Of a stretch of 64,000 bases of DNA, positions 5,701 to 58,105 are shown piece by piece. Under the pieces are notes generated by a model. The model did no database searches and had not been told where the DNA came from. It was given only the letters and a program-made list of their open reading frames with translations. Within the stretch, counting starts at the first letter, position 1, and every line of letters begins with the position of its first letter. The position numbers were made by a program, and so were the translations under genes. This stretch comes from Coprinus comatus (taxonomy: Eukaryota; Basidiomycota; Agaricomycetes; Agaricales; Agaricaceae), in NCBI GenBank assembly GCA_034638255.1, contig JAWPGT010000001.1, forward strand, positions 2,542,001 through 2,606,000. The letters are read 5' to 3'.

Positions 5701-8700
5701 TTGGTGGTTATGGAGGTGGTATGAGAGGAGGGGTAGGAGGTGATGAAGAAGAAGATTTTGATGGAATGACTTCTGTTCCTAATGATCATACTCAAACTCA
5801 TAGTCATGATCATCTTCGAATTGGAGGAGGAGGAGGTGGTGGTGGGCTCGCGATTCTTAATCGCTCACAATCACATTCAGGATCAACATCGAATTCAACG
5901 TCTACATCAACAGCTTCTGAAACTTCAATGAAATCATTTGGAACTGAAGTTTCGGAAAGACATTTACCTATGAATGGGAATTTTAGTATTGATATGAGTG
6001 ATTTTGGAACGAATGATTTTTCTGGGTCTAGAGGGTCGTTTCCTAGTATTCATTTTGATAGGAGTTTGTCTCCTGGGAGTACGGAAGAGGATGATGATGA
6101 CGATGATGACGATGACGATGACGATGACGGGGATGAAACTGAAGAAGAGGAAACGGAAGATGAAGAAGAGGATGAAGGTGAAGAAGATGATGGTTTTCAT
6201 GAAAAAATCATCTAGAATATCAATAGGAAAGGGAAAGGAAATAAGTACAAATACGAGGACGAGGATGAGAACGAGAACGAGAACACGAAAAATAATGGGA
6301 TCGGAAATGGAAATAGCAACGTCAACTGGGACAGCTATGATTCCAGTTCCGGGTGGTAGAAAAATTAGGAATAGGGATAGAGCTGGGACTATAGGTGCAA
6401 GAAATGGAAATGGAACGGAACTCCCAGTTGTAAATACACCGAAACCTGTACAAAGTACACCGGGAGTTACAAGGACGCTGTATATTCAGATGGAGTTTGT
6501 GGAGAGACAAACTTTGAGAGAGGTGGGTTTGGATACGTTTTTTGAATAACCCTGAAATTTGGAATCGTAATATTGATGTTTGTATTTTTTTTTTTTTTTG
6601 TAGAGGATTGACGAAGGGATTTCTGAAGATGAAGCTTGGAGGTTGTTTGGTCAGATTGTTGATGCACTTGTTCATATGTCGAATCTGGGGATCCTGCATA
6701 GAGATATTAAACTTACTAATATTTTTATTGGTATGTTTCTTTCCCCACACTGATCATTTGTATGTTATGTTAATTATTCTACGTTATTGTAGATGCAAGA
6801 GGGGATTGTAAAGGTGTGTGTTGTCTTGTTTGATCCCAGAAATATGGTAATTAATAGAGTTTTTTGTTTGTTTTATTACTTAGTTGGAGATTTTGGACTT
6901 GCAACTTCGAGTTTGGCGGCTGTAGATCCTTCAGATGTGTCTCGTCAATATATTTATCCTGAAGCAGATATGACTCTCGGTATGCTTAATCGTTTACTTA
7001 TATTGCTTATGGGTTGGGTATTGATGGGAATTTCTCTTTTGTGTTTTGTGCTTTAATTAGAGGTCGGGACCAGACTTTATATTGCACCCGAAGTTCAGTC
7101 GAAAAAGAGAGGCCCGAGGAATCATTCAAAGGCTGACATGTACAGTCTTGGAGTAGTATGTTTTGTTTTGTTTTGTTTTGTTTTTGTTATGTGTTGTAGA
7201 GCAAAATCTCTGACACGCTTTATTTTATAGATCGTTTTCTTTGAGCTGAATTATATGTTTACGACCGGGTCAGAGAGGATAGCGGTCATTGAAGATCTGA
7301 GGAAACCTGGAATCTTTTTCCCTAATTCTTGGGATCCTCATAGGAGCAGGCAACGCCAGAGTAAGGGTTTATTGGTCTTTATCATTCTGAAAACTGAATC
7401 GTTCCGTTCATCTTTTAGTCATTAGTTGGCTTTTACAACATGACCCTAACGATCGACCTACCGCTCTTGAATTATCTCAAAGCACATTGATGCCACCCAA
7501 ATTAGAAGACGAAAACTTCAGAGGAGCATTAAACCTAATGGCCAAACAAGATTCACCATATCATCAAGCTGTCATCGCATCTCTATTCAATCAAATTCCG
7601 AAACCTTCACGTTCATTCATATACGATTCTGAAGCTGATCCTCCGGAACATTCGGCTTTGAATGATACAGTTCAAGAAAGATTGGCAGCGATTTTTAGGT
7701 TGCATGGTGCTGTTGATATGGAACCTCCTTTACTTATGCCGGTTATGGATCCTGAAGATCAGAAGAATAATGCGACTTTTATTGATAAACATGGGGATTT
7801 GGTTACGTTGCCGAATAATTTGTTGTTGCCTTTTGCTAGGTTGGCGGCTAGGACGATGATTAAGAGGATCAAGAGGTATCATATCACGAATGCTTTTCGT
7901 CCCAGGTTAGTTCTTTTTGAATGGGGTTAAAATTGGGTTGTATTGATATATGCGTTTTGTAGTCCTGTAGCAGGTCATCCGAAGATAACGAAGGCTGCTG
8001 TGTTTGATATTATAACACAGGATTTAACTTCTGGTCCTTTGGCTGCTGGAGCGGAGATCATTTCTGTGATAAATGATGTTTTGAATAGTTTCCCTAATTT
8101 GTCACAGAATTATAACATTCATATATCACATTCACGAAGTGAGTCCTTGCTTGCTTCTTTTTTATTGAATGAAGAGAGGTGTTGATGTTTGATGTTTAGT
8201 TGTTGAACATGTGATGAACAGAATACCAAATACTCATAGGAACGCGGTGGTGGAGATTATTAATCAAACGAAATCTTCACCTTCGCAGAAGAGGGCTTTG
8301 TTATTGAAGAAAGGGTTACTGAGGAGTATGACTGATGAATTGGAAATTCTTTCTGAATGTGGTATGTTCTTATCATTATCTTATTTTCTTTCAACTAAAC
8401 AGAGGCTTAACTGACGCGATTTCGAATAGACGAGGACGTTGAAAATCTTATGTCACGTTTGGAGAAGGTTTCCCCGACTTTGATCACTATCCTTCGCCCT
8501 GCTATCAATGAAATCCAGAATACCTTACAGTTCGCTATATCAACGGGTGTTACAAGGCCTATCTATTTCCATCCGCTTATGTTGGGAAGTCATCAATCCT
8601 TATTCAAAGATGGTGTTATATTTGAAGTTCGTAAGGAAGAATAAAAGTATGGATGTACTTGCTGCTGGTGGTCGGTAAGTTTATCTACCCGAATATCCTT

Positions 8701-13575: not shown

Positions 13576-15627
13576 TCAGAGGTCTTGCCCGCTGAGCCAT
13601 CTCTGTACCAATGTCAATGCCTCCTTTGGTTTATCGAACGGGACCTAAAGCACGGTGAATCACAATAATTATCAGAGTGAATACATCTCACCAAATGCCC
13701 TGCTCCATCAATAGTAGCAAAAGTAAATCCCCCAAAACTCCTCGTTAATCCAGCCCTCTTTCCATCAACAATCCACTCTCGTTTTTCACTCTCCACAAAT
13801 CCTTTTTTCCCAGTCCATTCTAATTCCAAAGTCCATCGTTCATTTCCAACATGATTACAAATCCAATCATATGTTCCAACATATATCAAAGCTCGAATTC
13901 CACGATCAAGTAGTGCAGCAACGTAATCTGAAGTAATGTGAAGAGTGTCGAGAGCTATAAGGAAATTATTTCCTACAACTTCACTACAAGAAGTGAAGTT
14001 CTGAGGTACAGCAGAATCTACGCCTAGCATATTGCGGTTTGTTGAATTGCTAAGGAAATTACGTATATTACTGTAAATTGGTTTTGAGTAAATGGTTGAG
14101 AAGGGTTCAAATGTAATTTAAAAAAAACATACGCAGTTTGCGGGTAACATAATGTTTCGGCGAGCACCCCCTCGCAAGTTTTACTGATATCATAAGGATT
14201 TCGATCTATTACTCGTCATTGATTTCGAGGAAGAAAAGAAAAGGTAGTTGAATCTTACTTATGGCATAGTATGGGGTAGATATTATGGTTTGGCAGAATG
14301 AATATGCTGCTGCACAGTCGATATCATCAAAGTGCTCGATACATGACCTGGTTGTCCATCGTTCACATCGGTCAAGCTTTAATAAAGAAACAATAGTAAG
14401 TGATTGTGACATGAGGATGAGTTGAACATTAAGGCTGATTGTAGCATGCGACGTACAGTTTGTTTAATTCCAACGCAGGTTGTGATATCAAGAATAGGTG
14501 GGATAGAAGCAGGTGTACATTCCATATCGTAGTATGATAGAACCATTTTGAAGATGTCGGTCATCCCATTTCCTAGATATTGCGAAAAGAATATCAGTTT
14601 TTTTTTTGTTGCGATATTGATTACTCAAAAGCGTTCAGTGGAAAAGTCTTCTCACCAATCATAACAGATGTTAAATTAATAGGTTCGAGCCCCGCTTCGA
14701 CCATTCTCGCATTTTGATCATAAACAGCAGATGCAAAAAGTGGAATGTACCGCCCCTACTCCACTATATCAGTACGTGGAATATTTCAAAATGGTGACAA
14801 AAATTATTTACCCCATAAGATTCTCCGGCCATATGAAAAGCCCGCCCTTGAAACTGACGGAAGTTCTCGAAGAAAATGGCTACAAAGGCAGCAACATCAA
14901 TCGCTGCTTCCTCACTTGTTGACTTTGGGAAATGTGATTTAAATCAGCAACCTATTTGGTCGTATTCCTTGAAATTCACATACCACAGTCTCTCCGTAAT
15001 CAGCATAAGAGAAACCAACACCAATTGGTTGGTCAATGAAGAAAATATTGGCATTTGTATTCCAAGAATCAGGGTTAAATCTAGGCCCGTTGGCATCTGT
15101 AATCCTGCAAGGTCCTTTTGATCAATAGTACTTATCAGTATAGTGAAAGAATCGATAGATCGGATGCGAACCTAGCTCAAAGAATAGCCCAAGAGAGGAT
15201 GAACATCCTGGGCCACCATTCGTCCAGAATATGACGTCATCCGTATCAGGATTATTTCTACTCTCAAAGAAGTAGAAGAAGAGATGTCTAGCCTGTATGT
15301 CTATGTATCCTGTGTAACCTCTTCGCCACAGTCAGAAATGGGAATCTTTCGCTTGGAAAGTTTGAAACGGATAGAATCTTACTTGACAGTAGGATCACAA
15401 AAATCAGTGTTTTTCTTCACCCGAACACTGTATCTCGGAAACAAAGGGTGCGATAGTGTAGTAAAGTTTCTCTCAGGGACCTCTGATAAAGATGAAAAAG
15501 GCGTAGAGAAAGGTCCTGTATCATCATATTCGGTAGTAGTTGTTGCCCATCGGGCATGATTAAAGCTTCCTAGGATTGGACGAAAGATGCTGAGTGTGGT
15601 TGCAAGTAAGCAGAACAATTTGAGCAT
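13576..15627 (-). CDS. Serine carboxypeptidase, peptidase family S10 (carboxypeptidase Y-like)
   Basis: This gene encodes a secreted or vacuolar acid carboxypeptidase that removes C-terminal residues. It starts at 15627 with a hydrophobic signal peptide ([15 protein letters not shown]). Exons then give [19 protein letters not shown], with the Asn and Glu that bind the substrate carboxylate. [10 protein letters not shown] (about 14830) carries the nucleophile Ser preceded by Glu. [18 protein letters not shown] follows, then [14 protein letters not shown] with the catalytic Asp and IDGAGHLV with the catalytic His. The last exon reads [18 protein letters not shown] and stops at 13576. All catalytic and carboxylate-binding residues are present, and no frame break was needed in the parts checked. 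There are about eight short introns. It lies 10 kb from the RiPP-like island, so a link to it is only a guess. Confidence 0.88.
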
Positions 15628-23620: not shown

Positions 23621-25879
23621 TCATGCTCCTAATCCAAAGTCAACACTATAGACTACGGAAGTATCAGGAATCCCCATTGCTAGACGATGTACGGTCTTTC
23701 AACAAGAATGTAATTTAAGCTGAAGAAAAATATACATACCACGACGATTAAAATATCTCCTAGTACCATTCACCAGAGATTTGTACATTTCTTCATACTC
23801 TACTTCTCTATCTTCAAGTTCATTTTCCATATTCTCCACTACCAATGGGTCATCACTAACAGGGATTCTCTTCATGTGCCAATTCAACCACAGGGCTGTC
23901 GAAGTCATTTGAAGACAACTAACATGCCCAAAGCATACGGATTATTTAGAAAAGTCACTCTCTCAACCCGTATTTTTGGAGCAGTTTCTAGGTCGGAGGG
24001 GTGGGGGAAGGTCGGGTGGATGATATAAACTCCGAGTTCCTGCGTGTTATGATACGAGTCAACTAGAGCACCTAACCAGTTTATGAGTGGACTTACCGTA
24101 ACAACACTTATTCTATCCTCTTCGTATGCAAGGTATACAGAATCCACAGCAAAATTTAATTGTATGCTAATCTTGATATCGCTCAAGGTGGCCTCTCTTT
24201 GTTGATAACCCGTTCGAAATATGGAAGGAGCAATAATTTGGAACGTACACAAAGATAGCAATGTGTTGGCCACAAGGAGAAACGTGGGCTACGAAATTTT
24301 ATTACCGGATTTTGGACAAACTGTATGGTAATCAACCCACCTGATTGACACTCCGTATTCATCGCGAGACCCATGTAACTGTCTGGCTCTCGTATACCCC
24401 GCTTGATGGAATGTGAGACAACCACCTTGTCCTTGTATGCCCATGGTCTCTTCCTGTATTCCCGGTGCCTGTCAAGTAATAAACCGTCATCACTAGTATC
24501 GTCGTCGCTTTCCTCGTCTGAGTCAGAGTCTGACCATCGTGGACTAGGTGTTCGCAATCGCACTTCTGGCTCTTGATATTGATAGACTTCAGATACGAGC
24601 ATTTCATGTGGTTCCACGTATTCAACTTGGAAGGGCCATCTTTGGTTGAATCCTGCCAAGTCTATAACCTGAAGTTCCAGGACACATTCCCCTTCCCGAG
24701 CATCTCTTCTCTCATCGTCTGTCATTTGTGAATCCTGAGGATGGCGGCGAAAGACCCTGAATGCTCCTGAACCACATATAAATGCATAATTGTTATTGAC
24801 CTCGACGTAACTGATTTCTCCTAAGATGTCACCAGAATTTTGCCTAATAGGATCGTGATCTGTCTCGGGATGGGTGTTAGGCGTATTAACTGAACTGTTG
24901 GTGACCACAGTCTCTTCAGTTCTTGCTGCTCTACGCCTTTGATCGTCCCAAAACCAGATTGGTCTCTGGATATTGTTGATACGGTCGATGAGCTTCCCAT
25001 CCCGAATGTCCCAAAATAAAAGCGTGTTGTATCCACCAACAAGGAGGGTAGGATAAACAAAACGGTAGGCGCGACTTGGGACATCACCAGGAGGACGTAT
25101 CAAAGCATGAGGAAGAAATCGAATTCTAGATTGGTGAGGGAGTATCACTCGTTCATTTGCTTCTTTCTGGTGAACATCCACTTCAGATTCGGAGACAACA
25201 TCACCCCAATCGGTATCATTACAGTGCCAAACTTCCTTAGTGCCGCCGAAACGATCAAAGATGAGAAATCCTTCTCCATATTCGCAATGTGCATATGGGC
25301 GAACATAGTGCTATAATGAGTCAGTTTCAGTATTGTGTTCTTAGAGCAGTGCGGAACAGAGCATACGGGGGGTAATGCCCAGAGAAGGCTGTTGTCGGAA
25401 ATGTTTCTCACCGATATCCCACCACTTAGGTGCGACACAATAAAGAATCCACGCTTTTCATCGACTTTGATGCGATACACATTATCAAGTACATCACCTC
25501 TATTTTGGTGTTCCTTGATACGCGACGGCCCTTTTCCCAACCAACTCGAACGAACTTCGCATCCTCTACGACCTAAGATAGTTGAGTAAAACCCACAAAA
25601 ACAGAAAGAAAGAGGCATACAAAGGTTTTTCCAATCATTCGCATCTCCAAGAAATCTCTCCGAATGCCACTCCTTTGAGAGCACCCGATCAAATGATACA
25701 CTATCATGTGGAATTAAGTGTAGATCCGGATGTGCAGCTACCTGCCTGTAGATCGTGCTTTCATACTGATCGACAAATTCCTTGAGAGTTTTGCATGTAG
25801 CAATACATGCGGCAATTCCTGCTACGGAAACGTGCTTCAAAATCTCGAGAATCAACTCGGACGGAAGTGTGGTGAACAT
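23621..25879 (-). CDS. F-box protein with beta-propeller-like C-terminal region
   Basis: The start at 25879 gives MFTTLPSELILEILKHVSVA, a clear F-box that would dock the protein to SKP1 in an SCF ubiquitin ligase. The following region reads NVYRIKVDEKRGFFIVSHLS, then LLVGGYNTLLFWDIRDGKLI and FICGSGAFRVFRR. These strand-rich, WD-like units resemble the propeller-type substrate-binding part of mushroom F-box proteins. An acidic linker (SDSDSDEESDDDTSDDG) follows, then a conserved C-terminal part with YFNRRAMGIPD and a final exon ending VDFGLGA at 23621. Introns are short; the last uses a donor at GTATGT (about 23739) and an acceptor TAG before CAATGGG. Its target is unknown. F-box genes of this type are greatly expanded in Agaricomycetes. 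Confidence 0.78.
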
Positions 25880-25988
25880 GGTGGTTCTGGATATACAACC
25901 AAAATGGCAATTGCATCATCTTATGTCATAGCTTGTGACATAATTAAGTGCATTCATAATGTAGTAAAAAAGAACAAAAAAAACATTA

Positions 25989-26915
25989 TCACAACCTAAC
26001 TATCCATTCCACATGTTGTGTTAGATCGGGTTCATTTTCATAGAGATTGTCCTTTGCCCAGTCTCGAATTTTTTCGAAATTCCTACATGTATGAACAACA
26101 TCGTCTCTTTGTTCTGCTTTACCTCGAGTCTCATTCCATTGCCAAACGACAGTACTAATATCAGACGAGCACATGAGACTTTGTCGAATGGCGCCGATGC
26201 AGTGACGTAGATGTGAATATGGTAGGTGAAGGTCAGGGTATTGTTCATGATGGATTGTTTGCCTTAACATGTCCTGGTACAAGGGATTAGTAGAAGAACT
26301 CTAGGAAAAATTAAGGACAACGTACAAGACAATGAATTTGGTGAAAAACATCTAAAGCCGTTAGAAAATAGCCTTTGTGTTCGGGTATTGACCAAGTTCC
26401 GTTTGGCATTTGTGTTGCTAATTCCACTGGAATTTTGGAGGGAGCATCTATAGAAATGTTCATGACAGGAAATATTGAATTACTATTGAAGTACTTACAC
26501 ATATATAGCGCCTCCCAGGCCTCGTCTACTTCTGGTGAAGGCGGTTGTTCGTATATTGGTACATCGTCATAAAGTCCTCTGGTGAATTTCTGTATTCGAT
26601 ACTCGACAATATCTTGTGCTGGTGCTACATGGTAGATGTGAGAACCAAATTACTTTGAGTATCTGAAACCAATTACGCACAAAAAAGGAGTTGTGGTCCT
26701 GTCATTGAAGTACTACTGTCGGTCACTGGGTGCCATGAGTACAATAATATTAGAGCGCCATTGAGGAATATCGACAGAGTAAGCAGTAGCAGCACAGCAT
26801 AGTTCAGGGAAACAAAAGACGTGGGCGAGAACGTGGTGTGTACGTTCTCCTCTTTCTCTTCTTCAGAGAGAGGTTCGTAGGAGTGGGTATGTCGAGATTG
26901 CCACGGGAACGACAT
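25989..26915 (-). CDS. UstYa-family (DUF3328) oxidase A, putative RiPP-tailoring enzyme
   Basis: The start is at 26915. Residues 1-35 are polar and predicted cytosolic, followed by one membrane helix (about 38-59) and a lumenal domain, as in UstYa proteins. The domain reads YDDVPIYEQPPSPEVDEAWE, then FLTALDVFHQIHCL and, after an intron, HLRHCIGAIRQSLMCSSDIS. The two HxxHC motifs (HQIHC, HLRHC) are the conserved metal-binding signature of the family. The end of the domain (VVHTCRNFEKIRDWAKDN) is also typical. UstYa and UstYb catalyse oxidative macrocyclisation in ustiloxin biosynthesis in Aspergillus, and relatives act on phomopsin- and asperipin-type peptides. Here the gene is 5 kb from a second copy of the family and 6 kb from two candidate precursor peptides. 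Substrate assignment is inference; family assignment is strong. Confidence 0.88.
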
Positions 26916-27404
26916 TGTTTAAGGAAGAGAATATAATGCGAAGGTCCGGTTACAGTACAGTGAAGCTTATTGCACAGCCCAAGCAAGACACGGACCCGGA
27001 TTCTAGGCAAAACCTTTGAAATCGGACTAGCCATTGTTGTCAAGTAGAAAAGAGTCATAATCGGCACCATCATGTTCTGATAAAGATATCATTGAATAGT
27101 AAATCTTGATACTGACTTGAAACATTTGCTCTCGAGTGACACTATTAGTGGCGGCCGTCTAGTGATTTAATGCATAGAGATTGAAATACTTCAAAGGTTC
27201 AATTTCTTTCAGTGGGAATGGCGATAGTTGAGCGCTGAGCGTTAAAAATTAACCATTAAACGGTCTTGCATCTTCAGTGTGTGTGATTTGGCTGGGATTG
27301 ACCGCAGAGTCCAGACGCAGGCGACGGGTGCCTGCTGTTTATGTAAGTTGGTCACATTACGACATTACAACCGGCCGTCAAAACCCTGAGTATACCAATC
27401 TTTG

Positions 27405-29541
27405 ATGGCTCCAGCTATAGGTTATAGCGTACATTGGGGTAACACTGCAAATGCAAGCCTCTGCTCTAACAATACTTCCAGGAAGCTCATAGCAAAGATG
27501 TTGAAGAATGTGTTGGAAAAAACACCCCTCACTGGGAAATTCGCCCAACTTGAACGCCATCGCAAACGTCAGTTCTTGCGATGGCTAGTACCATGGTTGC
27601 TAGTAGGCGTAACGACCTTGTTACTTTTCTGGCGACCAGTACCACTAGTTATCTCTGGTGATGATTGGTACAGAAACATCGTGTCCCCTACTGGACTCTG
27701 CGAAAATGTACCTGGAAAACCTCCTAAAATGTTCACAGGTTACATTGGTCTTGGCGGCGATACTCCAATTTCTCCTAAGCGAAGCTTCTTTTGGTGAGAA
27801 TAATTATTATTGGTTGATGATGATAATTTGAGATTAATAGTCTGCGCATCACTCAGGCTCTTTGAAGCAGAAAATCAACCAGAAAATGCCCCTGTGGTGT
27901 AAAATCTTGTAATACTGATCCAGCAGTCTGGTATTGACTAATAATTTGTTTAGCTTAGTTACAGCGGGTGGCCCCGGTACCAGCGCGCTAGTTCATGCGC
28001 TATACGGACAATCCTCCTGTAAACTCGAAGGTGCAAACGGACTCGTCTATAATCCATGGCGCTGGACAGAACGCTTCAACATGTTATTTATTGATCATGT
28101 TCGTCTTTTTTCTTCACTATATGCGTTGTTATATCCATTTCCAAATGTCTGGAAGCCTGTAGGAACAGGTTTCTCGTATGGTTCCTTAGTGAACAATAGC
28201 TATTCTGCTGCTCTTGATGTTTACGATTTCTTGCAAAAATTCTATACTTTATTCCCCGCTTATTCAAGGTAAACATTCTTGACAAAACTGTTAGGAAAGC
28301 TGAAGTTAATGATTATGTAGAAATAAATTGGTCCTATCAAGTGGATCATACGGCGGCATATTCATGCCTCATATCGCAAATCTGATCATGAAATACAACA
28401 AATCTCCCAGACGGTCCAAGGATAAGAAAATTAATCTTGATTCAATAATGCTCACCAACCCCGTACTGGTATGTTTTTGTGTTTCTCCTGTTCTGTGATA
28501 TCGTTTGTAAGACTTTATTAGAACGTCGAGTCTCATTTCCTCCATATGTTGGATTACCGCTGCCAAGAAAAGCAGGTCTATGAGAACGAAACTTGTAATG
28601 TGTCGTATCAACATCTTCCAGAATGCCTAGAGAGGATTCGACTGGCCACTGTACTTACTAATGTCGAAAGGAGAATTTCGGCATTTGATTACTGCTACGC
28701 AAATATTGCTTCTGGGGACACTAATAACACCCTATTGGAGGACGTCAGAAAGAAGGTTGGTGTAAACCAATATTTGCGGGCCTGGTATTAATACCGTATT
28801 ATAGTGTTTTGCTACCCCCACACCAACGAATCCGGGAGTTTGTCACCCTCAATTTGAAGAGATAAATAAATATCTAAACGACCCAGAAGTGAAAGGGAAG
28901 CTTGGTGTACCACCAGAGCTTAAATACCGCTCTCTATCTATACCAGTCAATCAAGAATTTTACAAGGCAGGCGATATGTAAATGATCTCTTCGTTATTGT
29001 TCTTGGGTATCTGATTAGGATACTTGTAATACAGGATAGCCAAGCATCATCTCCTATTAGAACGGCTCTTACAAAAAGGCGTCCGGTTACTAGGTCCGTC
29101 CTGGTCAAAATTGCTCTGAAATCTTGTGTTTCATGTGTTTCTAGTTTATGTTGGTGCACAGGACGCAAACTGCGCATGGCCGGGTGTGATTTCATCGGTA
29201 CATATCCTTCTACAGATTGTGCTCGTATCAGCATCAATGACTCGGTTTACAGCTCAATCGCCTCAGAACACCTTTTCAAGAGCAATTCCTCGATGTCGAA
29301 GAAAGGGTGTGGAATCCTCTAAACTCTCCCGAGCTGTGCGCTCGCGTTCGCTCGGTAGGAAGTGGTGCAGGAAACTTGACTTATATCTTGATCAACGATG
29401 CTGGGCATTTCGTATGTCATGGGTTTGTTTCCGCTACTGTGATAAATTGACAAAATAGTTACCTAGGTCATCAAAGATAATCCAGCAATTTCGAAACTAA
29501 TTGCGGAGCATTGGATATTCAATAAAACATTTCATTCGTAA
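27405..29541 (+). CDS. Membrane-anchored S10-family peptidase-like protein with altered substrate-recognition residues
   Basis: The start at 27405 (alternative 27498) gives a basic N-terminus and one helix (about 58-76, WLVPWLLVGVTTLLLFW): a type II anchor with the enzyme domain outside the cytosol. About nine GT-AG introns join in frame. The domain reads FFWLFEAENQPENAPVVLVT, AGGPGTSALVHALYG, IDHPVGTGFSYG and LSSGSYGGIFMPHIANLI. Then come LLVYVGAQDANCAWPGV with the Asp, and TYILINDAGHF with the His; the stop is at 29541. Ser, Asp and His of the triad are present. The Asn and Glu of the NGGPG...E region and the Glu before the catalytic Ser (GES in S10) are replaced by Ala, Gly and Gly. It may therefore not be an ordinary carboxypeptidase. 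It lies between two UstYa genes and may process the island's peptides. Confidence 0.85.
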
Positions 29542-29730
29542 CTATCATATAGTAAACGTCAAGTAAATGAGACAATTTTTTTTTTACAAACGTTTCGTTA
29601 ATCGTCCAACATTCAATATAAAAACCAAACATTCAACAGCCTAGCAGGTCCTAGGCGTAATTACTTCCCTCAAAGCTCTTGATAGTATGGTGGGTGATAT
29701 TAACTTGAGTGGTAGAAAACATGTCGGCAC

Positions 29731-30942
29731 TCATTCCTTCAGAAGTGCGAACCCCGCTAATCTTAGTTCTATGTTCAAGGCCAGTCCTAGGGACACACGT
29801 GCTGTGATTAGAGTTGGTGCGATGCCCTTTAATCTCTATGTCAGGATTTTGGGATATATTAAAAACATGAGCTGCAGCTTACCGTTATCGGCACCAAGAT
29901 TGCCTGTGCATAACCTTGAGTAAAATCCCTCTGGGCGAAGAAAGGAAGAAAGATGATCATCACGACAGCATAAAGAGCCGCTGATTCTGTAATGATTTCA
30001 ATAACTCCTTTATACCTACTGGTCATGAATGTTTGCCGGGAGATTTGAACAATCCGAAAAACGATGAGACCGTTGGAGAGGAGGGTGGTTGCTAAAGACA
30101 GGGAAAAGTAAACCAGCCCATAGTTTACAAATCTTGCTCGATCAGAGGTAAAAAGTCTGCTTTGTGGTTGGATTTGAAATATGAGGCTAAAGACGCAGAA
30201 TACTGTTAGGATATTGTGTTAGAGATGACACTTGCAAATCTAATTATAGATCACATCTCACCTGTCCCAACAACCGTACTTATTAGGGGAAGAAGCGGTG
30301 CTTTCCAGTTCCTATCCCAAACTACCCAGCATCTCCACACCTAAAAGGGGGATTAGCAATGCCTCAACTATCCCGGGTAGAGCCTGATCCATACCAGTAC
30401 ACAATCAGCGATCAGTGTCATCAGTGATAAACTGAGACTTGATACGATAATGGACCATGTTGGCTGTCGCAGAATGGACTGCAAAATTGTATCCTCCGTG
30501 TTCCCATTCACTACAAATGCCTGCCGTACCATGTTCCACCGACAGCCTAAGTGAACAATTGAAAGACAGTAGAGGGTGATGATAATGGTTAACATGTATT
30601 TCCCCCCTTTATAATGCTTTCCACGTCGTCTAACTGCTATATGACTCGGATGTGAGTTTGACTGAAGTTTGACCATATAAAGTTAATAAATGTACCCAGT
30701 AGATAAAGCGTCATTCCAAATATCATGGTATACAGTCCTAGTGAAAAAAGGGAGTGCTTGCAAGTAAATACAAAAAGAAATACCAAAATTACAAAAGAAA
30801 TTTGCTTGCCGTTCATAAAGCTCTCTAGAAGTGTCATTCCCAAACCAACATCCCGGACAATGAACGATAGCTCTACCGCTGGCTGGGCCATCTGACTTTC
30901 GAGACTTGAGAGTGAGGGGAAACTTGCTCCAAGTGTAATCAC
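29731..30942 (-). CDS. Polytopic membrane protein of a mushroom-wide family (about seven helices), function unknown
   Basis: Spliced reading from 30942 (alternative ATG 30891) gives MAQPAVELSFIVRDVGLGMT, then MNGLYTMIFGMTLYLL. The junction uses a GC-AG intron (GCAAGC donor at about 30815). Next come the helices MLTIIITLYCLSIVHLGCRW, SSLSLSLMTLIADCVLVWRC followed by WVVWDRNWKAPLLPL, NYGLVYFSLSLATTLLSNGL and ESAALYAVVMIIFLPFF. The motifs RWNMVRQAF and IADC(V)L(V)WRCWVVW recur in many Agaricomycete hypothetical membrane proteins. The C-terminal end is uncertain. The direct frame after TARVSLG stops at 29731, whereas a one-base shift would continue to 29651 through a more family-like tail. It sits inside the RiPP-like island, between the S10-like gene and UstYa B, but the family is also common outside such islands. 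Confidence 0.75.
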
Positions 30943-31616
30943 TGTGAAACACCCACATCTGCTGGACTGTATTATTATATCAGTAACGCACTGGCACGAG
31001 CCACATTCGGCCGTAAACGCAATGGAGTCTAGTAAGGTTAGCTTACTTTGATTTTGATACTACTCCGGGTGACAGCTTACTCTAATATCAGAAAGTCTTG
31101 GTATGTAGTACAGTACTAGTACTATTAGTGAGCTGCGCATCTAAGTATCAGCGCTCATCACTTCCTATCTCAAGATGGGGACTATCTTTTCTTATAATCA
31201 TTAGTGCCTAATTTTTCGGATTTCTTCACTTGAGTCTGAGCACATGCCATTGGGCGTGTGAAAACGATAATTGATGAAACGATGATATCGAGTCACTGAG
31301 CCAGATCATTACACTGATCAGCATAACTGCGCCCGAACAGCCATTGTTACTTCACTACTAGACAGATTCCGCCTTACCAAATCTGTACCATGAAACTGAC
31401 CGCTTTACAATCCAATACTTAAATGATCGCCTCAAAAGGCATGATGGAGATTTAAGCCCGGTATATGTTAATATGCTACGGCAATCAGTGCCTACACATT
31501 ACATACCGCTAACTTGGTAGAACATCAGGCAGTACAGGTCATTGATAACACTTCTCCTCACTCACTCACCTTGACATTTTACCTTATCCTCCTACTACTA
31601 TACCTACTGCCTCCCT
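30943..31616. promoter_or_regulatory. Divergent promoter region between membrane-protein gene and UstYa B
   Basis: About 670 bases with no gene. It separates divergently transcribed genes of the island, so it probably holds both promoters. The 31550-31616 leader of UstYa B is CT-rich (CCTCCTACTACTATACCTACTG). No clear TATA box comparable to those of the precursor genes was seen close to 31617. Confidence 0.4.
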
Positions 31617-32569
31617 ATGCCCGCTCAACGAAAGCGTTTATACGACACGTTACTCCGGGGCGAAGAATCTTATACGGATTTGGACAATAATGATGATATT
31701 CACATGAATAGACCAAAAATCAATCGAACTTCCTGTTGTGGAAGTTGCACCTGGACGCTTTTCTTGTTGGTCCCATCTCTGTTATTCAACATATACGTCT
31801 GTGGAATCTGGCTGCAAGGCGGGGTTGGGCGCGGGCAGTGGCACCTCTCACTGGTATTTCCCCAGCGGGTACATTGTGAGTAATTAGCATCCCAAGTCGA
31901 CACCCACTTATTTGTTCGTTCACTCATTAGCACCCGCCGAAAGGGCACTGGGATACGAAAACAAAGTATTCTCTCGGGGACTGATAGATCAGGCTTCTAT
32001 ATATGAACAGGGGCCTTCTAAAGAGGTAGACAAAGCGTGGTTGGACCTATATGAGTGTGAGTTTTGACTAACTTCCTTGGGGAAGAATTATTAAAGTCAT
32101 CATCACCTGTTGCTACATAGTCTCAAGTGCCACCCTTCCTAGGAAAACTAAAGTACCAACATTTAACGAGACCCTAGATTTCGTGAAACATACTAAAGGA
32201 TCACGTATTCAAATGCTAGATGTCTTTCATCAGCTACACTGCCTGGTTAGTATCATTCGTCTCGTAAACATGATCGAAGTCCAAGTAATCATCTTATGTC
32301 CTTAGGATATGGTAAGACAGGCTTTGCATCCCCAGGCCTATAACCATGATATTGGCGAAGAACACATCACGCACTGCATCAATTCCATTCGACAGTCTAT
32401 TATGTGTATGTCAGATATAAGTGTAGTGTCTTGGGAGTGGAATGAGCAACTGGATTCCCTAGTTGAGAGCGCTGATAATGTTCATACATGTCGCGATTTT
32501 GACAAGTTGAAGGAATGGGCGCAAAGAACTCATTTTGATCGTCGGTTTATTGTAGTACAATCTCTCTAG
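31617..32569 (+). CDS. UstYa-family (DUF3328) oxidase B, putative RiPP-tailoring enzyme
   Basis: The start at 31617 gives a 44-residue polar tail, then one membrane helix (about 45-66) and the DUF3328 domain. Three or four introns splice in frame (for example donor at 31877, GTGAGT). The domain reads SIYEQGPSKEVDKAWLDLYE, MLDVFHQLHCLDMVRQAL, then HITHCINSIRQSIMCMSDIS and NVHTCRDFDKLKEWAQ, ending at 32569. Both HxxHC motifs (HQLHC, HITHC) are present, so the active site looks intact. It shares the layout of oxidase A but is clearly diverged from it (HLRHCIGAIRQ against HITHCINSIRQ). Its stop codon lies only about 270 bases before the start of precursor peptide A on the same strand, the tightest link in the island. 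In dikaritin clusters, two UstYa-type proteins commonly act on one precursor. Confidence 0.9.
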
Positions 32570-32766
32570 TAGCTCCGGCGATTTGTGTTGGGCTGGTAGT
32601 AGTACTATTAGCTTATAAGTTTGATTCAACTTGCGGGCGTTCGGAATTGACTGATATATATTCCAAATACCCGCATAAAGAGTAAATAATATATATTAAA
32701 GGCCTTGAGATTATTGGAACGCAAATGTTTGATGCCGCATAGGAATCGCGGACAGGCCCTCATGGC

Positions 32767-32773
32767 TATATAT
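32767..32773 (+). promoter_or_regulatory. TATA box of precursor peptide A
   Basis: TATATAT lies 73 bases before the ATG at 32840, within GGCTATATATT. The same GGCTATATATT occurs 83 bases before the ATG of precursor B. The surrounding sequence (CCGCAT upstream, TATTACTCTG and CCCA(A/G)TCTTCCTCATC downstream) is shared by both promoters. Confidence 0.6.
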
Positions 32774-32839
32774 TCAGTGGGCTATTACTCTGGCAACACA
32801 TTGTTTAACCCAATCTTCCTCATCTAGCTCTACCACATT

Positions 32840-33072
32840 ATGAAGACTTTATCCTTTATCTTCATGTTCTTCACAATATATTATGCATCAGCTGCAACCA
32901 TTCCGAATCACTCTGGAGATCTCAGGGGTGAGGGTAAGCGTATCGTCAAGTTGAGCTCTCATTATCAAACTTACATTTTTCAGGTGCGGCATCCAGGAGA
33001 CCACTAATACCTCAAATATCCCACGGGTGGCCTTTCAGATCGTACGACGACCGAGATGGCAATGTGGCCTGA
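32840..33072 (+). CDS. Candidate RiPP precursor peptide A (60 residues, secreted)
   Basis: Two exons, with an intron at 32934-32983 (GTAAGC...CAG, phase 1). The N-terminus MKTLSFIFMFFTIYYASA is a signal peptide with a likely cut near ASA-A. It is followed by the conserved ATIPNHSG, a variable middle with an RR pair (AASRRPLIPQISH), and the C-terminal GWPFRSYDD plus a six-residue tail, RDGNVA. The twin gene at 34193 shares the signal peptide, ATIPNHSG, the intron position and GWPFRSYDD exactly, while the middle differs. Conservation at both ends with a loose middle is what a leader-core precursor would show. Trp, Phe and Tyr in the motif are plausible targets of the neighbouring UstYa oxidases. 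It has no CaaX end, so it is not a mating pheromone. The core boundaries and modification are inference. Confidence 0.75.
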
Positions 33073-33304
33073 CTGTAGTGGCGACGGGCTGGTCAATAGT
33101 ATGTTCGTCCGCCATATCTCCTCCCTAGCTCAACTACAAATCTAAACAAGGAGAGTTAAGTTTTCCAAAAGAGATCATTGCAAAGATCGTAGAATATAAG
33201 AAAGGATAGTGTGAATTAATTATGATTGTGGAGATCGGTAAAGACATAGTAGAGGAGGTTGTGGTTCTTCGGAAGGGTCCAGCAAACCAATTTCATCATG
33301 GTTT

Positions 33305-33940
33305 TCATAATTGGCAAGCTTGTAACGTTAGAATGAACAATGTCGCAATGAACAGAACTGCGATGCTAATGAGGATTGCGATGGGCGTAGCAGCTAAAGT
33401 GTTTGGTTCCAATTGCTATGCGAGAAAGCCGGCGAAGAACAGGAACAAAGAAACCAGAAGCAGGCAATGCATTGTGAAACGCAATGAGTCCCCATTTCGT
33501 AAACTTGCGTGTCGCTGATAATGCAGATATATGTCAGTTTTGTCAGTTTTACTGAATTCTAGAAGCCATTGAGAGCAAGTAATGCCTTCGAGTACGAAAA
33601 TAAGACTAAGCGTGAGGCTGAAGGAGTAGAGGAGGTCTATTTGTTGAGCATCTGATGGTGACATAGACCTCACAGAATCGAGGTTGATCGAGGAACTTGG
33701 CTGAAAATTCGATAGATTGTTCACTTGAAAGACTGACGTTCGAAAGTAAGAGGACCATTTCCTCGCAAAGTCGACCTTGATTGCTTTTGAAGCTTCTAGC
33801 GTGAATATGCTGTCAAAATAGTGGAGAACAATGAAGCCTTTGAATTGTTATACATCTTCAGTGGAATGAGAACAAAAAGAAAGTAAACTCACAAAAAATG
33901 AGTAAGTGGGATATTGAAATGCAATTTGAACGCAATGCAT
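33305..33940 (-). pseudogene. Truncated DUF6535-like membrane protein, disrupted
   Basis: Minus-strand reading from about 33940 gives a short exon (MHCVQIAFQYPTYSFF). A longer exon follows with DLLYSFSLTLSLIFVLEG, then CSQWLLEF and CLLLVSLFLFFAGFLA. This resembles the C-terminal half of the basidiomycete DUF6535 domain, where FxLSLTLSLxxVLxGILCKQWLREY is typical. An in-frame TAG follows FLA. Beyond it the same frame continues as a further helix (PIAILISIAVLFIATLFIL), so the stop is inside homologous sequence. The N-terminal part of the domain is missing or diverged. It lies between the two precursor-peptide copies. I call it a decayed gene; a functional short form cannot be excluded. Confidence 0.55.
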
Positions 33941-34109
33941 AAACGTTTGAAACCCACAACGAGTAATTCATTCTAACCCCTGATTGTGTCGTAAGAGCCA
34001 CAGATGACAGGTCAGGTACATCAATACATCATCGCCCCTTTCACTGCCTGAAGTCAATAAGTACTCGGTGGAAGGTGATACCGCATCCGAGTATCGAGTC
34101 ACGGACGGC

Positions 34110-34116
34110 TATATAT
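34110..34116 (+). promoter_or_regulatory. TATA box of precursor peptide B
   Basis: TATATAT in GGCTATATATT, 83 bases before the ATG at 34193, matching the promoter of precursor A in both core sequence and flanking words. Confidence 0.6.
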
Positions 34117-34192
34117 TAAGAGGGATATTACTCTGACAATGATCATATCGTTCGAACCTAACCCAGTCTTCCTCATCCAACTCTACCCTATT

Positions 34193-34425
34193 ATGAAGAT
34201 TCTGTCTCTTATCTTAATGCTCTCCATGATATATTTCACCTCAGCTGCAACTATTCCGAATCACTCTGGAGGCCGGGACAGTAAGTGTAGTCAAGTTGTC
34301 AAGCTCTCATAATAAAATTCCTTACCTCTCTTTCAGATCTGTCCCCGAATTCAATAGATTCCCTGGGCTCTCGCCAGAGGAAGCCTGCGTCAGCTGGGTG
34401 GCCTTTCAGATCGTACGACGACTGA
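34193..34425 (+). CDS. Candidate RiPP precursor peptide B (58 residues, secreted)
   Basis: Two exons with an intron at 34281-34336 (GTAAGT...CAG) at the same codon phase as in precursor A. The signal peptide is MKILSLILMLSMIYFTSA, then the conserved ATIPNHSGG. The middle differs (NLSPNSIDSLGSRQRKPASA, with an RK pair), and the protein ends with GWPFRSYDD directly followed by TGA. In copy A the aligned codon is CGA (Arg). DNA similarity continues past the TGA (GATxxCAATxTGGCC, then GGGCTGGTCA), so the stop here comes from one base change and removes the tail seen in A. The GWPFRSYDD codons are identical in both copies. No known toxin or pheromone motif is recognised. Precursor status rests on the pairing with UstYa genes and on the conservation pattern. 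Confidence 0.75.
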
Positions 34426-34851: not shown

Positions 34852-36039
34852 TTAGTGCGGTGGAGTAATCATTAAGATGGGGGAAGGTCGGACGACCTCT
34901 ATGCCATCTACGAGAATAGTTGATATCAATGGACAAAGCCAAGGATCTCTTAAAGCTCCAATAAGGTCCTCTGTATCAACTCCCCGAATTCGGAGAAGCC
35001 GTAACTGAGGAAATGCACGCAACAAATATGTCGTCAATGGATGCGAAAACTCTGAAATATTTGACAAGCTCAACATATGTAATCGAGCAAATACAACGGG
35101 AGTTCTGGCAATTTCGTTGATCACTCCGACTAAGCGAACCAACGCAGAACCTCGGATGTTCTCGAGCTCGAGCTCCTCGAGAACAAACGGATTCATGACA
35201 GAGCGGACAACCTGAACAGGCAGATTGGTCTCATAATCAGATATGTAAATAAATTTGAGGTGTTGGTTATTAATGGATGGTGAGAAAGTAAGAGAAATAC
35301 GCTTTTGTGAGAACATGTCTAGGGTTCCAGCCAACCTAAGCTGGGTGAGTTGCGTCATGCAAGGCTGAGATGGAGTTGCGGGGTGATTATCATCCAGAAG
35401 TGCCTTTTGGTTGAGTATATGTTCCGGTGCTCTAACCAGCGTAAGGGACGTTACACCGGAAAGTTCTGAGGCATGAGATATATGCAGCCCAATTCCTTCT
35501 AGCGTCAAGGTCTTGAATCGTTCTTGATTCAGGCTGAGCGGACCAATGTAACATTGTTGTTGAACCATCAAGGTTTGCCGGACAACGAGACATTCAAGCC
35601 TCGGGAGTTGTTGGAAGATTGGGAAAATTCGGGAAATGATGACGTTCCGGCCAATAATTCGAAGCTCTTGTAGCCGGTCAGTGACCGAGGCATCGGAGAT
35701 CGCCTGCAGAAATGGTTGGTGTGCAGACAAAAACACAGTGACATCCATGTCTGCGAGAGCCAGGGTGAGTGGATACGGATTTGAACGTTGAAGGATATCT
35801 TGAGTTATTGTGGGATTGTGGGGATGCGATATATGTACGTGAGTCCAGTGATGAGGGAGGTCTAGAATGACCTCACGCCAGTGATGGCAGACATGAGACA
35901 GAGTGAGTGGAGTAGTAATTGAGCTTTTCGAGTCGGAAAGCAGATGCGATTGATGTACCAAGTTAAAGATGTCAACAAGCAGTTCTGTCGGCGCTTCCGC
36001 CATCCGCGATAACCTAGGGGGTAGGTAGTTGTGTTTCAA
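34852..36039 (-). CDS. F-box protein, Agaricomycete type
   Basis: A single-exon protein of about 395 residues. It starts at 36039, or at the internal ATG giving MAEAPTELLVDIFNLVHQSH, which is the better F-box start. LTLSHVCHHWREVILDLPHHWTHVHI is the standard end of the mushroom F-box-like motif, including the Trp pair. The rest is a run of leucine-rich, strand-forming units (LTLVRAPEHIL, MTQLTQLRLAGTL, LEELELENIRGSALVRLVGV, RLHMLSLSNISEF, FPQLRLLRIRGVDTEDLIGA), consistent with degenerate LRRs. It would recruit an unknown target to an SCF ubiquitin ligase. It ends the accessory island on its right side. The frame is intact. Confidence 0.82.
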   Translation of the reverse strand: MKHNYLPPRLSRMAEAPTELLVDIFNLVHQSHLLSDSKSSITTPLTLSHVCHHWREVILDLPHHWTHVHISHPHNPTITQDILQRSNPYPLTLALADMDVTVFLSAHQPFLQAISDASVTDRLQELRIIGRNVIISRIFPIFQQLPRLECLVVRQTLMVQQQCYIGPLSLNQERFKTLTLEGIGLHISHASELSGVTSLTLVRAPEHILNQKALLDDNHPATPSQPCMTQLTQLRLAGTLDMFSQKRISLTFSPSINNQHLKFIYISDYETNLPVQVVRSVMNPFVLEELELENIRGSALVRLVGVINEIARTPVVFARLHMLSLSNISEFSHPLTTYLLRAFPQLRLLRIRGVDTEDLIGALRDPWLCPLISTILVDGIEVVRPSPILMITPPH

Positions 36040-36697
36040 CAGCTATGTTGAGGTTGCTTATGTATGTTTGTCTCACGCCCTGACAGTGACATTACACATG
36101 TTAAATTGCTGGTCCAACCAGGTACATACTTGGTACATATGTACCTGCTGGTTCTATGTAAACAGAACCGCTAGAAGTTTCATTCAATTAGGGATTGATA
36201 GGGATTCTCCAATACAATATGCGACGTTTTTACTATGCATTAGATTTCTGCTGATTTTTTTTTTCAGGGTTTCATTATTTATATCAAGCCTGGTGATAGC
36301 TGAGCGCTGATTAATGATTCTTACTGGATTCTTTTAGGGATGTATGTGCTCCACATGTGCTCTTACTGATCTATACAAGCTGATACACCATACACCTACC
36401 CGGATTCCGGAGGCTGACTGTTTCAATGTTTCAGTAGTCCTAAAAACACAATGTAATGAATACCTTCCTTACAACGGACATGACAGCTCCTAGAATATAG
36501 AAGAGCTCATCTATTATGTACATTGTAACGAGACTCAGCACAAGTACACAAGAAAGTAGGTAGCCTTTAATAAGTTCAATGACGACATTCGTTCCTGTCA
36601 TTCTCCGTACTCATAAACTTAGTGATTTGTGAAGAGCGTACCATGAACACTCCCTTACAGTGTACACGAAACTGCACCATGTCGCATACGAGAATAC
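36040..36697. other. Intergenic region
   Basis: No gene seen. The part next to the F-box gene is its probable promoter. The right part is AT-rich, 3' flanking sequence of the damaged membrane-protein gene. Confidence 0.4.
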
Positions 36698-55751: not shown

Positions 55752-58105
55752 TCAACTGCGTACAAAACCAACTTTCAAAGGTAACCCTTTCTTCTCAACA
55801 ACCACTCCCTTCTCCTTCCCGGAAGTAGTAGTGGTGGTAGTAACGGTTCTGACAGCAGGAGCAATAATTTGTGATAAATTCCAAACAATTTCGTCTTCGT
55901 GTGATGGTTCGAATGTGAATTTCGTTAAGAGGATCGAAAGTATGATTTCTATGATTTAAACTCAGTTATTAATGAACATTCGAGGGATAAGAAGGAAGGA
56001 CGTACTCATTTCCAATTCCGCAAATTTATACCCACTACATATCATAGTTTCAAGTTAAATTCAAATCCTCGACTGCAAGAGTTGATATACTTACATACAA
56101 GACCTATTCCCACCTAAAAACGACATCCTGTAAGAAAAAAAATCCCAGTCAACGTCAACACCACCTCTCTGCAAGCTCTTGGGTTCTCTCAAGTAGAGAG
56201 AAAACGAAAACGTACATCCCAGAATAAACCCCAGGTAACTTCTCCCTCTCTCTCTTCTCCTCACTACCAATACCAACACCAACACCATTAGAACCAGAAC
56301 CAGAACCAGAACCGGTAATCCAACGTTCAGGTTTCCACTCTTTAGCATCCCACCCCCAAACACTTTCTAACCTATTACTTGCAGCTATACCTATAAACAA
56401 TGTAGTTCCTTTTGGAATGTTTACGTGACTTGTTTGGTTTCGGTTTCAGTTTTAGTGGAGAGGAAGAGGAGGTAGGGTGTATATGGAACCACACAATCTC
56501 TCGTTGCCCTAATTAAACCATTAACCGTCAAACATCAACACTTCAACCATTGGAAAGCAAGAAGAAGAAAAAAAAACGTACACTCTACGAACGAAAGGAG
56601 CTGGTGGATACCTATTAATCGTTAAACATCCCGAAATACCGTCATCCATTATTAGTATAAGAGGTGAGAGGAAGGAAGAAAGAGAGTAAGCGAAAACGTA
56701 CATTCGAAGAGTCTCTTTAATAACAGCATCTAACCAATGTAAACTCATCAATTCATCATAACTAAACCTTTCCTTTCCTTCTTCTTCTCCTTTTCCCTCC
56801 TACCTCGTTACCGTCACTATCACCATAATTGTGAGACTCGAAGTCAGGATCAGGATCAGTGTCGGATTCGGATTCAGTCAACTTCTTATTCCTCCTCAAC
56901 TCCAAAATCTCCTTTCTAATCTTTTCTTGAATATCCATTCTATAAGATAATTTCCATAATATTCTCGAGAGTGTTGAGGAAGTAGTATCTTGAGCTCCAA
57001 ATATTAATACCCTATTGGATCGTAATCATTAAAACAAAGTAGAAAGAGAGAGGGAAGTCACAGGAAAAGTAGACGTACGTCATTTGACCAGTCAATTCTT
57101 CATCACTCATTCTTTCATTTCTCGGTACTTCATCATTCGCTTTCACTTTTAGTAGAAATTCGATTAGTCTTCAAAAAAAAAAAAGAAGAGATAATTACCA
57201 TTGGTAGTACTCACCTAAAATACTAATAACATCTCTCCCCTCTTCCCCTTTCTCACCTACCAAGTCCGAATCCTTATCCTTATCCTTATTCAACAACTCA
57301 AACCGCTTCTCCTTCAAAATCTCTTTAGCCTTTAAATCCATAACATCCGACATTTGCTTTAATTTCTTAACAGCAGTTATCGGTGCTATATCTACTAGCT
57401 TCTTACGAAACCATGAAGGTCCTAGAGTTATTAAGAAGGGAGAAAGCTGACGGAGGAGTGATAATGAGAATATTGTTGGTCTGTTTGTTGTGGGTGTTAG
57501 TGAATGAATGGAAAAGGTAAGAGTTTCAGAGGTGTGGGGTAAGAGTTTTTTTTTTTTTTTTGTTAAAATGAATGAATAAAAAATCACAGAAGGTTAGTAG
57601 GGAAAGAAAGACGTACATAAGTTCTTTAATAGCCCTAGTATACGGATTAACTTCTTTAGAATCTAATGAATCAAAAGAATAGCTTAGGACTGTGCGTCCT
57701 ACCGATTCTAAAGCGAATCTTGACATCCAATCTGACATATCTATTTTAATGTTCTTCTTCCTAATTCTTTTACCTTCACCGTCACCATTGTTTAAGTTTG
57801 TAGTAGTACTCTCGTTGGGCTTCATATACCCCAAACCAGAACCCAAATCCAAACCAGAACCACAACCAGAACGAACCTCATCACTTAAAACTCTTTCAAC
57901 ATCCTCAGCAACATCAAACAATCTCCCAACAACTCTCTCACTTCTCAAATACTTATTATTCAAAAAAAATGGGTAATGTTAGTTTTCGTTGATGTTTATG
58001 TTGAAGTCCTTTAGTTGAAACTAGACCTGGTCCGAATATTGCTTTATTTGTTCTAATTTATTTATTTATTATGAAAATTTTAGTCAGTAATGAACGCTTG
58101 AGCCT

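What the first reader, a model, noticed from the sequence alone, without database searches (positions are those of the whole stretch)
25989..34425. Candidate undescribed RiPP (UstYa / dikaritin-like) gene cluster in a basidiomycete
Seen: within 8.5 kb there are two UstYa-family proteins, each with a membrane helix and two HxxHC motifs, a membrane-anchored S10-like peptidase, a polytopic membrane protein and two tiny secreted peptides with an identical GWPFRSYDD motif. Known: in Ascomycota, UstYa proteins cyclise peptide cores of ustiloxin-, phomopsin- and asperipin-type RiPPs. Inferred: the two peptides are precursors whose aromatic motif is oxidatively modified. Most described dikaritin precursors carry several core repeats between Kex2 sites; these have one copy each, so the architecture would be distinct.
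Basis: partly seen in the sequence, partly recalled or inferred. Interest (0 to 1): 0.93.

Follow-up and report, generated by a model that had tools for sequence, protein, structure and literature searches.

The report
Candidate mushroom modified-peptide gene cluster
A mushroom genome holds a compact set of genes that probably makes a small secreted peptide, oxidises it with copper-type enzymes and trims it, and comparable sets elsewhere in the same genome suggest that this is a real and partly new version of a known kind of peptide pathway.

Summary
Between two F-box-type genes lie two intact UstYa genes (Pfam 4e-47, 3e-43; two HxxHC motifs each), a membrane-anchored S10 carboxypeptidase, a seven-helix membrane protein and two 58-60 aa secreted peptides sharing GWPFRSYDD. 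The strongest new evidence is from the same genome, where 7 UstYa genes were found at 5 loci. At 2 of the 4 other loci secreted multi-core repeat precursors lie beside UstYa (C3: 5 x 20 aa around VQPASSWGGF; C31: two genes with NFxxxGNPTPDS-type cores); at the other 2 I found none. So 3 of 5 UstYa loci carry precursor-like peptide genes, this one with one core per gene. At 3 of 5 loci a member of one 7TM family (18 found) lies within 2.5 kb of UstYa, above chance; a larger control family does so at 1 of 5. Most likely this is a UstYa-type RiPP cluster giving an oxidised GWPFRSYDD-type peptide. Expression, product and peptide homologues were not seen. UstYa genes and repeat precursors near them were already reported in Basidiomycota, so this is a new variant, not a new class. 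The bolder, untested reading is a modified-peptide signal with a co-encoded 7TM receptor.

The parts
25989..26915 (-). U1: UstYa-family oxidase, 255 aa, 4 exons (26681-26915, 26499-26624, 26326-26447, 25989-26273), N-terminal membrane anchor, motifs HQIHC and HLRHC
27405..29541 (+). S10 serine carboxypeptidase, 498 aa (start 27498) or 529 aa (start 27405), 11 exons, N-terminal membrane anchor
29731..30891 (-). 7TM: 286-aa polytopic membrane protein of a Pfam-less family, exons 30810-30891 (GC-AG intron follows), 30696-30737, 30395-30636, 30262-30340, 29883-30202, 29731-29826
   Evidence: the border of exons 2 and 3 was corrected by hand from the sequence after the script had used a non-GT donor
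31617..32569 (+). U2: UstYa-family oxidase, 257 aa, 4 exons (31617-31875, 31931-32056, 32121-32245, 32306-32569), motifs HQLHC and HITHC; 67% identical over 60% of its length to a partial Macrolepiota fuliginosa protein
32840..33072 (+). P1: secreted 60-aa (or 58-aa) peptide precursor, one intron 32934-32983; core GWPFRSYDD at 33025-33051, followed by RDGNVA
34193..34425 (+). P2: secreted 58-aa peptide precursor, intron 34281-34336; ends in core GWPFRSYDD (34396-34422)
33416..33847 (-). DUF6535 gene piece lying between P1 and P2; member of a large family, probably incidental
34852..36042 (-). F-box-like gene that bounds the cluster on the right
   Evidence: 22.3 bits, just under the Pfam cut-off of 24.3
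25145..25915 (-). F-box gene that bounds the cluster on the left

Best explanation
A UstYa-type RiPP cluster of an agaric mushroom with one core per precursor gene. P1 and P2 enter the secretory pathway and lose the signal peptide at about ...SAA (seen only as sequence features). The conserved stretch ATIPNHSG after it is a candidate recognition leader (inference). A kexin-type protease cuts the basic sites before the core (P1 ASRR, P2 SRQRK) and, in P1, after YDDR; in P2 the PA-SA that follows the basic site fits STE13-type dipeptide removal, leaving GWPFRSYDD; the S10 enzyme trims C-terminal residues, so both genes would give the same C terminus (inference). U1 and U2, membrane-anchored copper-type oxidases with both HxxHC motifs intact, then oxidise or cross-link W, F or Y side chains of the core (inference from the family). 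The product is secreted. The 7TM protein is more likely part of the module than a chance neighbour, but its role is unknown.
For: Intact UstYa pair. Secreted precursor-like genes at 3 of 5 UstYa loci of this genome: this one, C3 (161 aa, 5 x 20-aa repeats, TRF 4.8 x 60 nt) and C31 (two multi-exon repeat genes). Chance of such genes at 2 or more of the 4 other loci: 3e-5 to 3e-3 for 6 to 60 of them per genome (these gene numbers are assumed, the repeat genes were not counted genome-wide). The same repeat scan over 8 loci of 7-10 kb around other 7TM genes gave one weak word match and no such gene. P1 and P2 share signal peptide, ATIPNHSG and core (27 of 27 nt), with a diverged intron (46%) and linker (45%); exon 1 looks under purifying selection. 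Dicopper-dependent cross-linking by DUF3328 enzymes is reported (passage of PMC12186524).
Against: No transcript, no product, no homologue of the peptides. At 2 of 5 UstYa loci (C9a, C9b) no precursor was found within about 10 kb. P1 has no XA/XP ladder after RR, P2 has the weak site RK, and Pro follows both, which kexins dislike (recalled). The identity of the cores includes all synonymous sites, so gene conversion could explain it. No co-inheritance of S10 with U2 was seen: the best S10 relatives are not from the species nearest to U2, and no other S10 match lies at the other UstYa loci. UstYa enzymes also act outside RiPPs (hydroxylation, chlorination in cyclochlorotine clusters; passage of PMC12048977). 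KEP peptides detected in agaricomycetes were linear and minimally modified (abstract of PMC9769878). Shared promoter motifs are at most weak (pairwise P 0.01-0.07 for 9- to 11-mers, none shared by all three regions at that length).
Confidence: 0.65

Rival explanations
1. The peptides are linear, kexin-processed secreted peptides (signal or antimicrobial), and the UstYa genes act on something else or are not co-expressed.
For: Linear or minimally modified KEP peptides are what was detected in four agaricomycetes (abstract of PMC9769878); only 6.1% of basidiomycete KEPs lie near DUF3328 genes (passage of PMC7329392).
Against: Precursor-like genes at 3 of 5 UstYa loci in this genome; compact bounded cluster.
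Confidence: 0.17
2. The UstYa pair belongs to a non-RiPP pathway (small-molecule hydroxylation or halogenation) and the peptides are chance neighbours.
For: UstYa enzymes have such roles (passage of PMC12048977). A cytochrome P450 piece lies in the window, but 23 kb away (57526-57978 minus).
Against: No PKS, NRPS or terpene synthase match in the cluster genes or in the 18 of 26 long window ORFs that I scanned (single-exon pieces only, 8 of 26 not scanned); an S10 peptidase is present; sister loci have precursors.
Confidence: 0.08
3. Modified-peptide signalling: the UstYa-treated peptide is perceived by the 7TM protein of the same cluster, as alpha-factor is by Ste2 in yeast.
For: 7TM family matches 1.7, 2.4 and 2.0 kb from UstYa at 3 of 5 loci; P about 2e-6 if the family has 18 members, 3e-4 if 100, 2e-3 if 200. 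The DUF6535 family (105 matched stretches) is within 4 kb at 1 of 5. Cognate GPCRs for such peptides in Basidiomycota were speculated on before (passage of PMC6339444).
Against: No Pfam GPCR match; the association was noticed after the fact and in one genome; 15 of the 18 members found are not near UstYa; the C3 locus has a precursor but no 7TM within 35 kb; could be a transporter or self-protection protein.
Confidence: 0.1

Closest known systems
Dikaritins (ustiloxin, phomopsin, asperipin-2a, victorin) of Ascomycota
   Same: UstYa/DUF3328 oxidase(s) with two HxxHC motifs beside a signal-peptide-bearing precursor; a peptidase in the cluster, as in several of them
   Different: One core per gene in two genes, where dikaritin precursors typically have several core repeats (passage of PMC12048977); S10 peptidase where phomopsin-type clusters have S41 (passage of PMC6514808); no tyrosinase or methyltransferase match among the cluster genes; a 7TM protein is present; basidiomycete
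KEX2-processed repeat proteins (KEPs) of Agaricomycetes (Coprinopsis, Lentinula, Pleurotus; PMC9769878, abstract and passages seen)
   Same: Short secreted precursors with basic sites; sister loci C3 and C31 of this genome look like such precursors
   Different: P1 and P2 have no repeats and would be missed by repeat-based mining; the peptides detected there were linear or minimally modified, and the main text held has no DUF3328 or UstY
Lichen RiPP clans R1/R2 (PMC12048977, passages seen)
   Same: UstY homologues, no repeat precursor found; the authors mention a possible single core peptide
   Different: There no precursor was identified; here two candidate single-core precursors are shown
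Ascomycete alpha-factor system (Kex2, Kex1, Ste13, Ste2)
   Same: Secreted precursor, basic sites, XA dipeptides in P2, an S10 carboxypeptidase and a 7TM protein in the neighbourhood
   Different: UstYa pair added; the 7TM has no Pfam Ste2/Ste3 match; S10 is closer to carboxypeptidase Y (3.5e-46) than to KEX1 (1.1e-23)

Membership tests
UstYa / DUF3328 oxidases | Pfam PF11807 above its cut-off | tested here: met
   161 and 148 bits, cut-off 25
UstYa / DUF3328 oxidases | Two HxxHC motifs and one membrane helix | tested here: met
Dikaritin RiPPs | Precursor with signal peptide beside the UstYa genes | tested here: met
   P1 and P2 start 0.27 and 1.6 kb after U2; signal peptide judged by hydropathy and a cleavage-like site only
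Dikaritin RiPPs | Several core repeats between Kex2 sites in the precursor | tested here: not met
   One core per gene; but two genes with the same core
Dikaritin RiPPs | Dibasic Kex2 sites flanking the core | tested here: inconclusive
   ASRR in P1, SRQRK in P2, Pro follows both; only R after the core in P1, stop in P2
Dikaritin RiPPs | Tyrosinase, methyltransferase or S41 peptidase in the cluster | tested here: not met
   No match among the genes of 25989-34425; S10 peptidase instead. Asperipin-2a has one UstY and no peptidase (passage of PMC12048977), so this is no strict criterion
Dikaritin RiPPs | Oxidatively cyclised product | not testable with these tools
   needs mass spectrometry
KEP | Repeated peptides separated by Kex2 sites | tested here: not met
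   P1 and P2 have no repeats; the C31 gene A meets it, C3 has repeats with single R sites
Serine carboxypeptidase S10 | Family profile and catalytic Ser, Asp, His stretches | tested here: met
   Pfam 224 bits; GSYGG, GAQDANC, DAGHFV align with carboxypeptidase Y
Fungal pheromone receptors (Ste2, Ste3) | Pfam STE2 or STE3 match | tested here: not met
   no Pfam family at E 0.01

The most novel reading that the evidence does not exclude
A mushroom signalling module in which a UstYa-oxidised, single-core secreted peptide is made, trimmed by a dedicated S10 carboxypeptidase and perceived by a 7TM receptor encoded in the same cluster, with at least two more UstYa-7TM loci (C31, C9a) in the genome: a modified counterpart of the alpha-factor system in a phylum whose sexual pheromones are said to be a-type only (passage of PMC6339444).
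Probability: 0.12. Interest if true: 0.88.

Novelty: new variant of a known kind. Interest (0 to 1): 0.6.

Why it matters
Agaricomycetes can hold many UstYa genes, and their substrates are mostly unknown; Umemura considered that cyclisation of such peptides might hardly occur in Basidiomycota (passage of PMC7329392). Here one genome links UstYa genes to candidate substrates at 3 of 5 loci and offers a single-core precursor that repeat-based mining cannot see. It gives exact masses to look for. The recurring 7TM neighbour makes the earlier guess of cognate receptors for such peptides testable.

Tried and rejected
Peptide homologues: P2 against 5.8 billion proteins, none; upstream and exon 1 DNA of P2 against the genome, only P1 and P2; exon 2 of P2 as protein found only P2 itself and missed P1, so that search is not exhaustive. 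Other GWPFR matches in the genome (6 of 8) are not exon 2 of a signal-peptide gene by my splice rules (with P1 and P2 recovered as positive controls).

Promoter motifs: a first test seemed very strong, but the 450-base upstream stretches of U1 and S10, and of the 7TM and U2, overlap each other; after correction only P 0.01-0.07 remains for shared pairs of 9- to 11-mers and nothing for sites shared by all regions, so I do not use it.

Synteny through contig lengths: one Mycena filopes contig of 791,715 bases has a UstYa (P0039) and two S10 proteins (P0140, P0173); distance unknown, so a lead only, and the other species that I compared by eye did not match. S10 relatives (120 listed of 169 found, only the 7996 candidates with most shared words scored): best in Amylostereum, Mycena, Sphaerobolus and Crucibulum at 46-51%; the one Macrolepiota protein listed has 45%. 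This speaks against S10 and U2 having been inherited together as one old unit.

UstYa tree: U2 groups with three Agaricaceae rows (99/99); U1 falls near a Mycena group with weak support (80/8); the C31 and C9 proteins are long branches. I draw nothing more from it. No PDB chain matches U2 by sequence.

Dropped rows: the hit L023 minus 2884 (48 repeated words) is the reverse of a low-complexity ORF, and L034 minus 3276 had one repeated word; neither is counted. That scan finds repeat precursors only; it could not find a single-core gene such as P1 at the control loci. C31 gene A is counted as 4 cores and gene B as 4 by eye; gene B is degenerate and its splicing is a guess. The signal-peptide scans list many other hydrophobic starts, which I judged by eye.

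Viral contigs scanned with the UstYa alignment: 35 pattern hits, none a relative. Structure prediction was never run: machine busy.

Full report
What is there. The window is bases 2,542,001-2,606,000 of contig 1 of a 35.7-Mb, 134-contig assembly. The nearest relatives of U2 are from Macrolepiota, Leucocoprinus and Leucoagaricus, so an agaric is likely (inference). Between an F-box gene (25145-25915) and an F-box-like gene (34852-36042) lie U1, S10, a 7TM gene, U2, P1, a DUF6535 piece and P2.

The peptides. P1 is MKTLSFIFMFFTIYYASAATIPNHSGDLRGEGAASRRPLIPQISHGWPFRSYDDRDGNVA; P2 is MKILSLILMLSMIYFTSAATIPNHSGGRDNLSPNSIDSLGSRQRKPASAGWPFRSYDD. They are a tandem duplication: 5' flank 78% identical, exon 1 73%, intron 46%, linker 45%, core 27 of 27 nt, 3' flank 72% of aligned bases (the alignment is). 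Exon 1 has dN about 0.17 and dS about 0.60 over 27 codons. Two blocks are thus kept, ATIPNHSG and GWPFRSYDD, with a free linker between, which is what a leader plus core looks like. Because all synonymous sites of the core are identical too, gene conversion remains possible.

The enzymes. Both UstYa proteins have one N-terminal helix and both HxxHC motifs. In 60 relatives (60 of the 120 listed and 140 found, chosen by me, U1 and U2 not among them) D-V-F-H-x-L-H-C of motif 1, the second H and the C of motif 2, and HxC near the end are invariant; U1 has I for the L. Dicopper-dependent cross-linking by DUF3328 enzymes is reported (passages of PMC12186524; the original papers were not held). The S10 protein aligns over the whole domain with carboxypeptidase Y.

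The in-genome comparison. Two searches agree on 7 UstYa genes at 5 loci (lower bounds). At C3 a single UstYa (Pfam match from 948.4 kb, likely start near 948.0 kb) lies 1.1-1.5 kb from a 161-aa secreted protein with five 20-aa repeats around VQPASSWGGF. At C31 a UstYa pair (50.6-52.3 kb; one member has HQISC in place of HxxHC) has a multi-exon repeat precursor on each side: gene A (57.12-57.68 kb) with four NFR(I/M)xGNPTPDS cores, three followed by KR and the last by the stop, and gene B (49.08-48.15 kb) with four degenerate versions. An S33-type alpha/beta hydrolase lies between the pair and its 7TM gene. At C9a and C9b no precursor was found within about 10 kb. So 3 of 5 UstYa loci have candidate substrates. 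This is the main reason why I believe the RiPP reading.

The 7TM protein. It has no Pfam family. Four protein searches of the genome give 18 places in all (E up to 0.001 and 0.1 in the others; some of the weakest may be false, and the list is a lower bound). By matched-exon coordinates three of the 18 lie 1.7, 2.4 and 2.0 kb from UstYa genes at C1, C31 and C9a; at C3 and C9b the nearest is 35 and 39 kb off. Under uniform placement P(3 or more of 5) is 1.7e-6 for 18 members, 2.8e-4 for 100 and 2e-3 for 200. As a control for shared unstable regions, the DUF6535 family with 105 matched stretches is within 4 kb at 1 of 5 loci (this window). The association was noticed after the fact and rests on one genome.

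Mechanism. Seen in sequence: gene structures, families, motifs, duplication, neighbourhood. Inferred: secretion, cutting at ASRR and SRQRK, removal of PA-SA by a STE13-type enzyme in P2, trimming after YDD(R) in P1 by S10, oxidation of W/F/Y by U1 and U2. Cutting after single arginines was suggested for agaricomycete precursors expressed in Pichia (passages of PMC9769878).

Known and new. UstYa-like genes are known from Pleurotus (16 genes, passages of PMC8893723). KEPs near DUF3328 genes are known in Basidiomycota (103 of 1680; passages of PMC7329392). Agaricomycete KEPs have been studied by mass spectrometry and knockout, with no DUF3328 or UstY in the main text held (abstract and passages of PMC9769878). 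Single-core UstY precursors were considered in lichens but not shown (passages of PMC12048977). I found no report of this peptide (search for WPFRSYDD). For UstYa with S10, searched DUF3328, carboxypeptidase and peptide: 4 papers hold the three terms, 3 were listed, and I saw only titles and abstract openings. No search was aimed at UstYa with a 7TM neighbour; others (secreted peptide, pheromone and receptor terms; UstYa, DUF3328 or dikaritin terms) listed none that I recognised by title. These searches cover only openly licensed papers.

Verdict. A real, bounded candidate RiPP cluster of known logic in a less explored phylum, with an unusual precursor layout and a recurrent 7TM neighbour. It is not a categorically new system on present evidence.

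Noticed in passing
L024 about 6121-6680 (G000:C31:57121-57680, +) and L023 about 8076-7150 (C31:49076-48150, -): Two multi-exon secreted repeat precursors with NFxxxGNPTPDS-type cores flank a UstYa pair; gene B puts roughly one core in each mini-exon.
   Followed up: partly
L021 7379-7909 (G000:C3:946379-946909, -): Secreted 161-aa protein with five 20-aa repeats around VQPASSWGGF, without dibasic sites between the repeats, 1.1-1.5 kb from a UstYa gene.
   Followed up: partly
L023/L024, C31:50594-51130 (-), and C9:617879-618442 (+): One UstYa of the C31 pair has HQISC and the C9a UstYa has HQLRC in place of the first HxxHC, so some copies may be catalytically altered partners.
   Followed up: no
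L024, C31:53324-54106 (-): S33-type alpha/beta hydrolase between the C31 UstYa pair and its 7TM gene, a possible counterpart of the S10 peptidase of the window.
   Followed up: partly
window about 13614-15322 (-): A second S10 carboxypeptidase gene, with stronger single-exon Pfam matches, 12 kb left of the cluster.
   Followed up: no
window 57526-57978 (-): Piece of a cytochrome P450 (24.3 bits, cut-off 22.8), 23 kb right of the cluster.
   Followed up: no
whole genome (G000): DUF6535 is greatly expanded: 105 matched stretches, many on small contigs such as C27, C40, C80, C87 and C96.
   Followed up: no
window 33052-33072 and 34423-34425: A C/T difference right after the core makes the stop codon of P2 where P1 reads on for RDGNVA.
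   Followed up: partly
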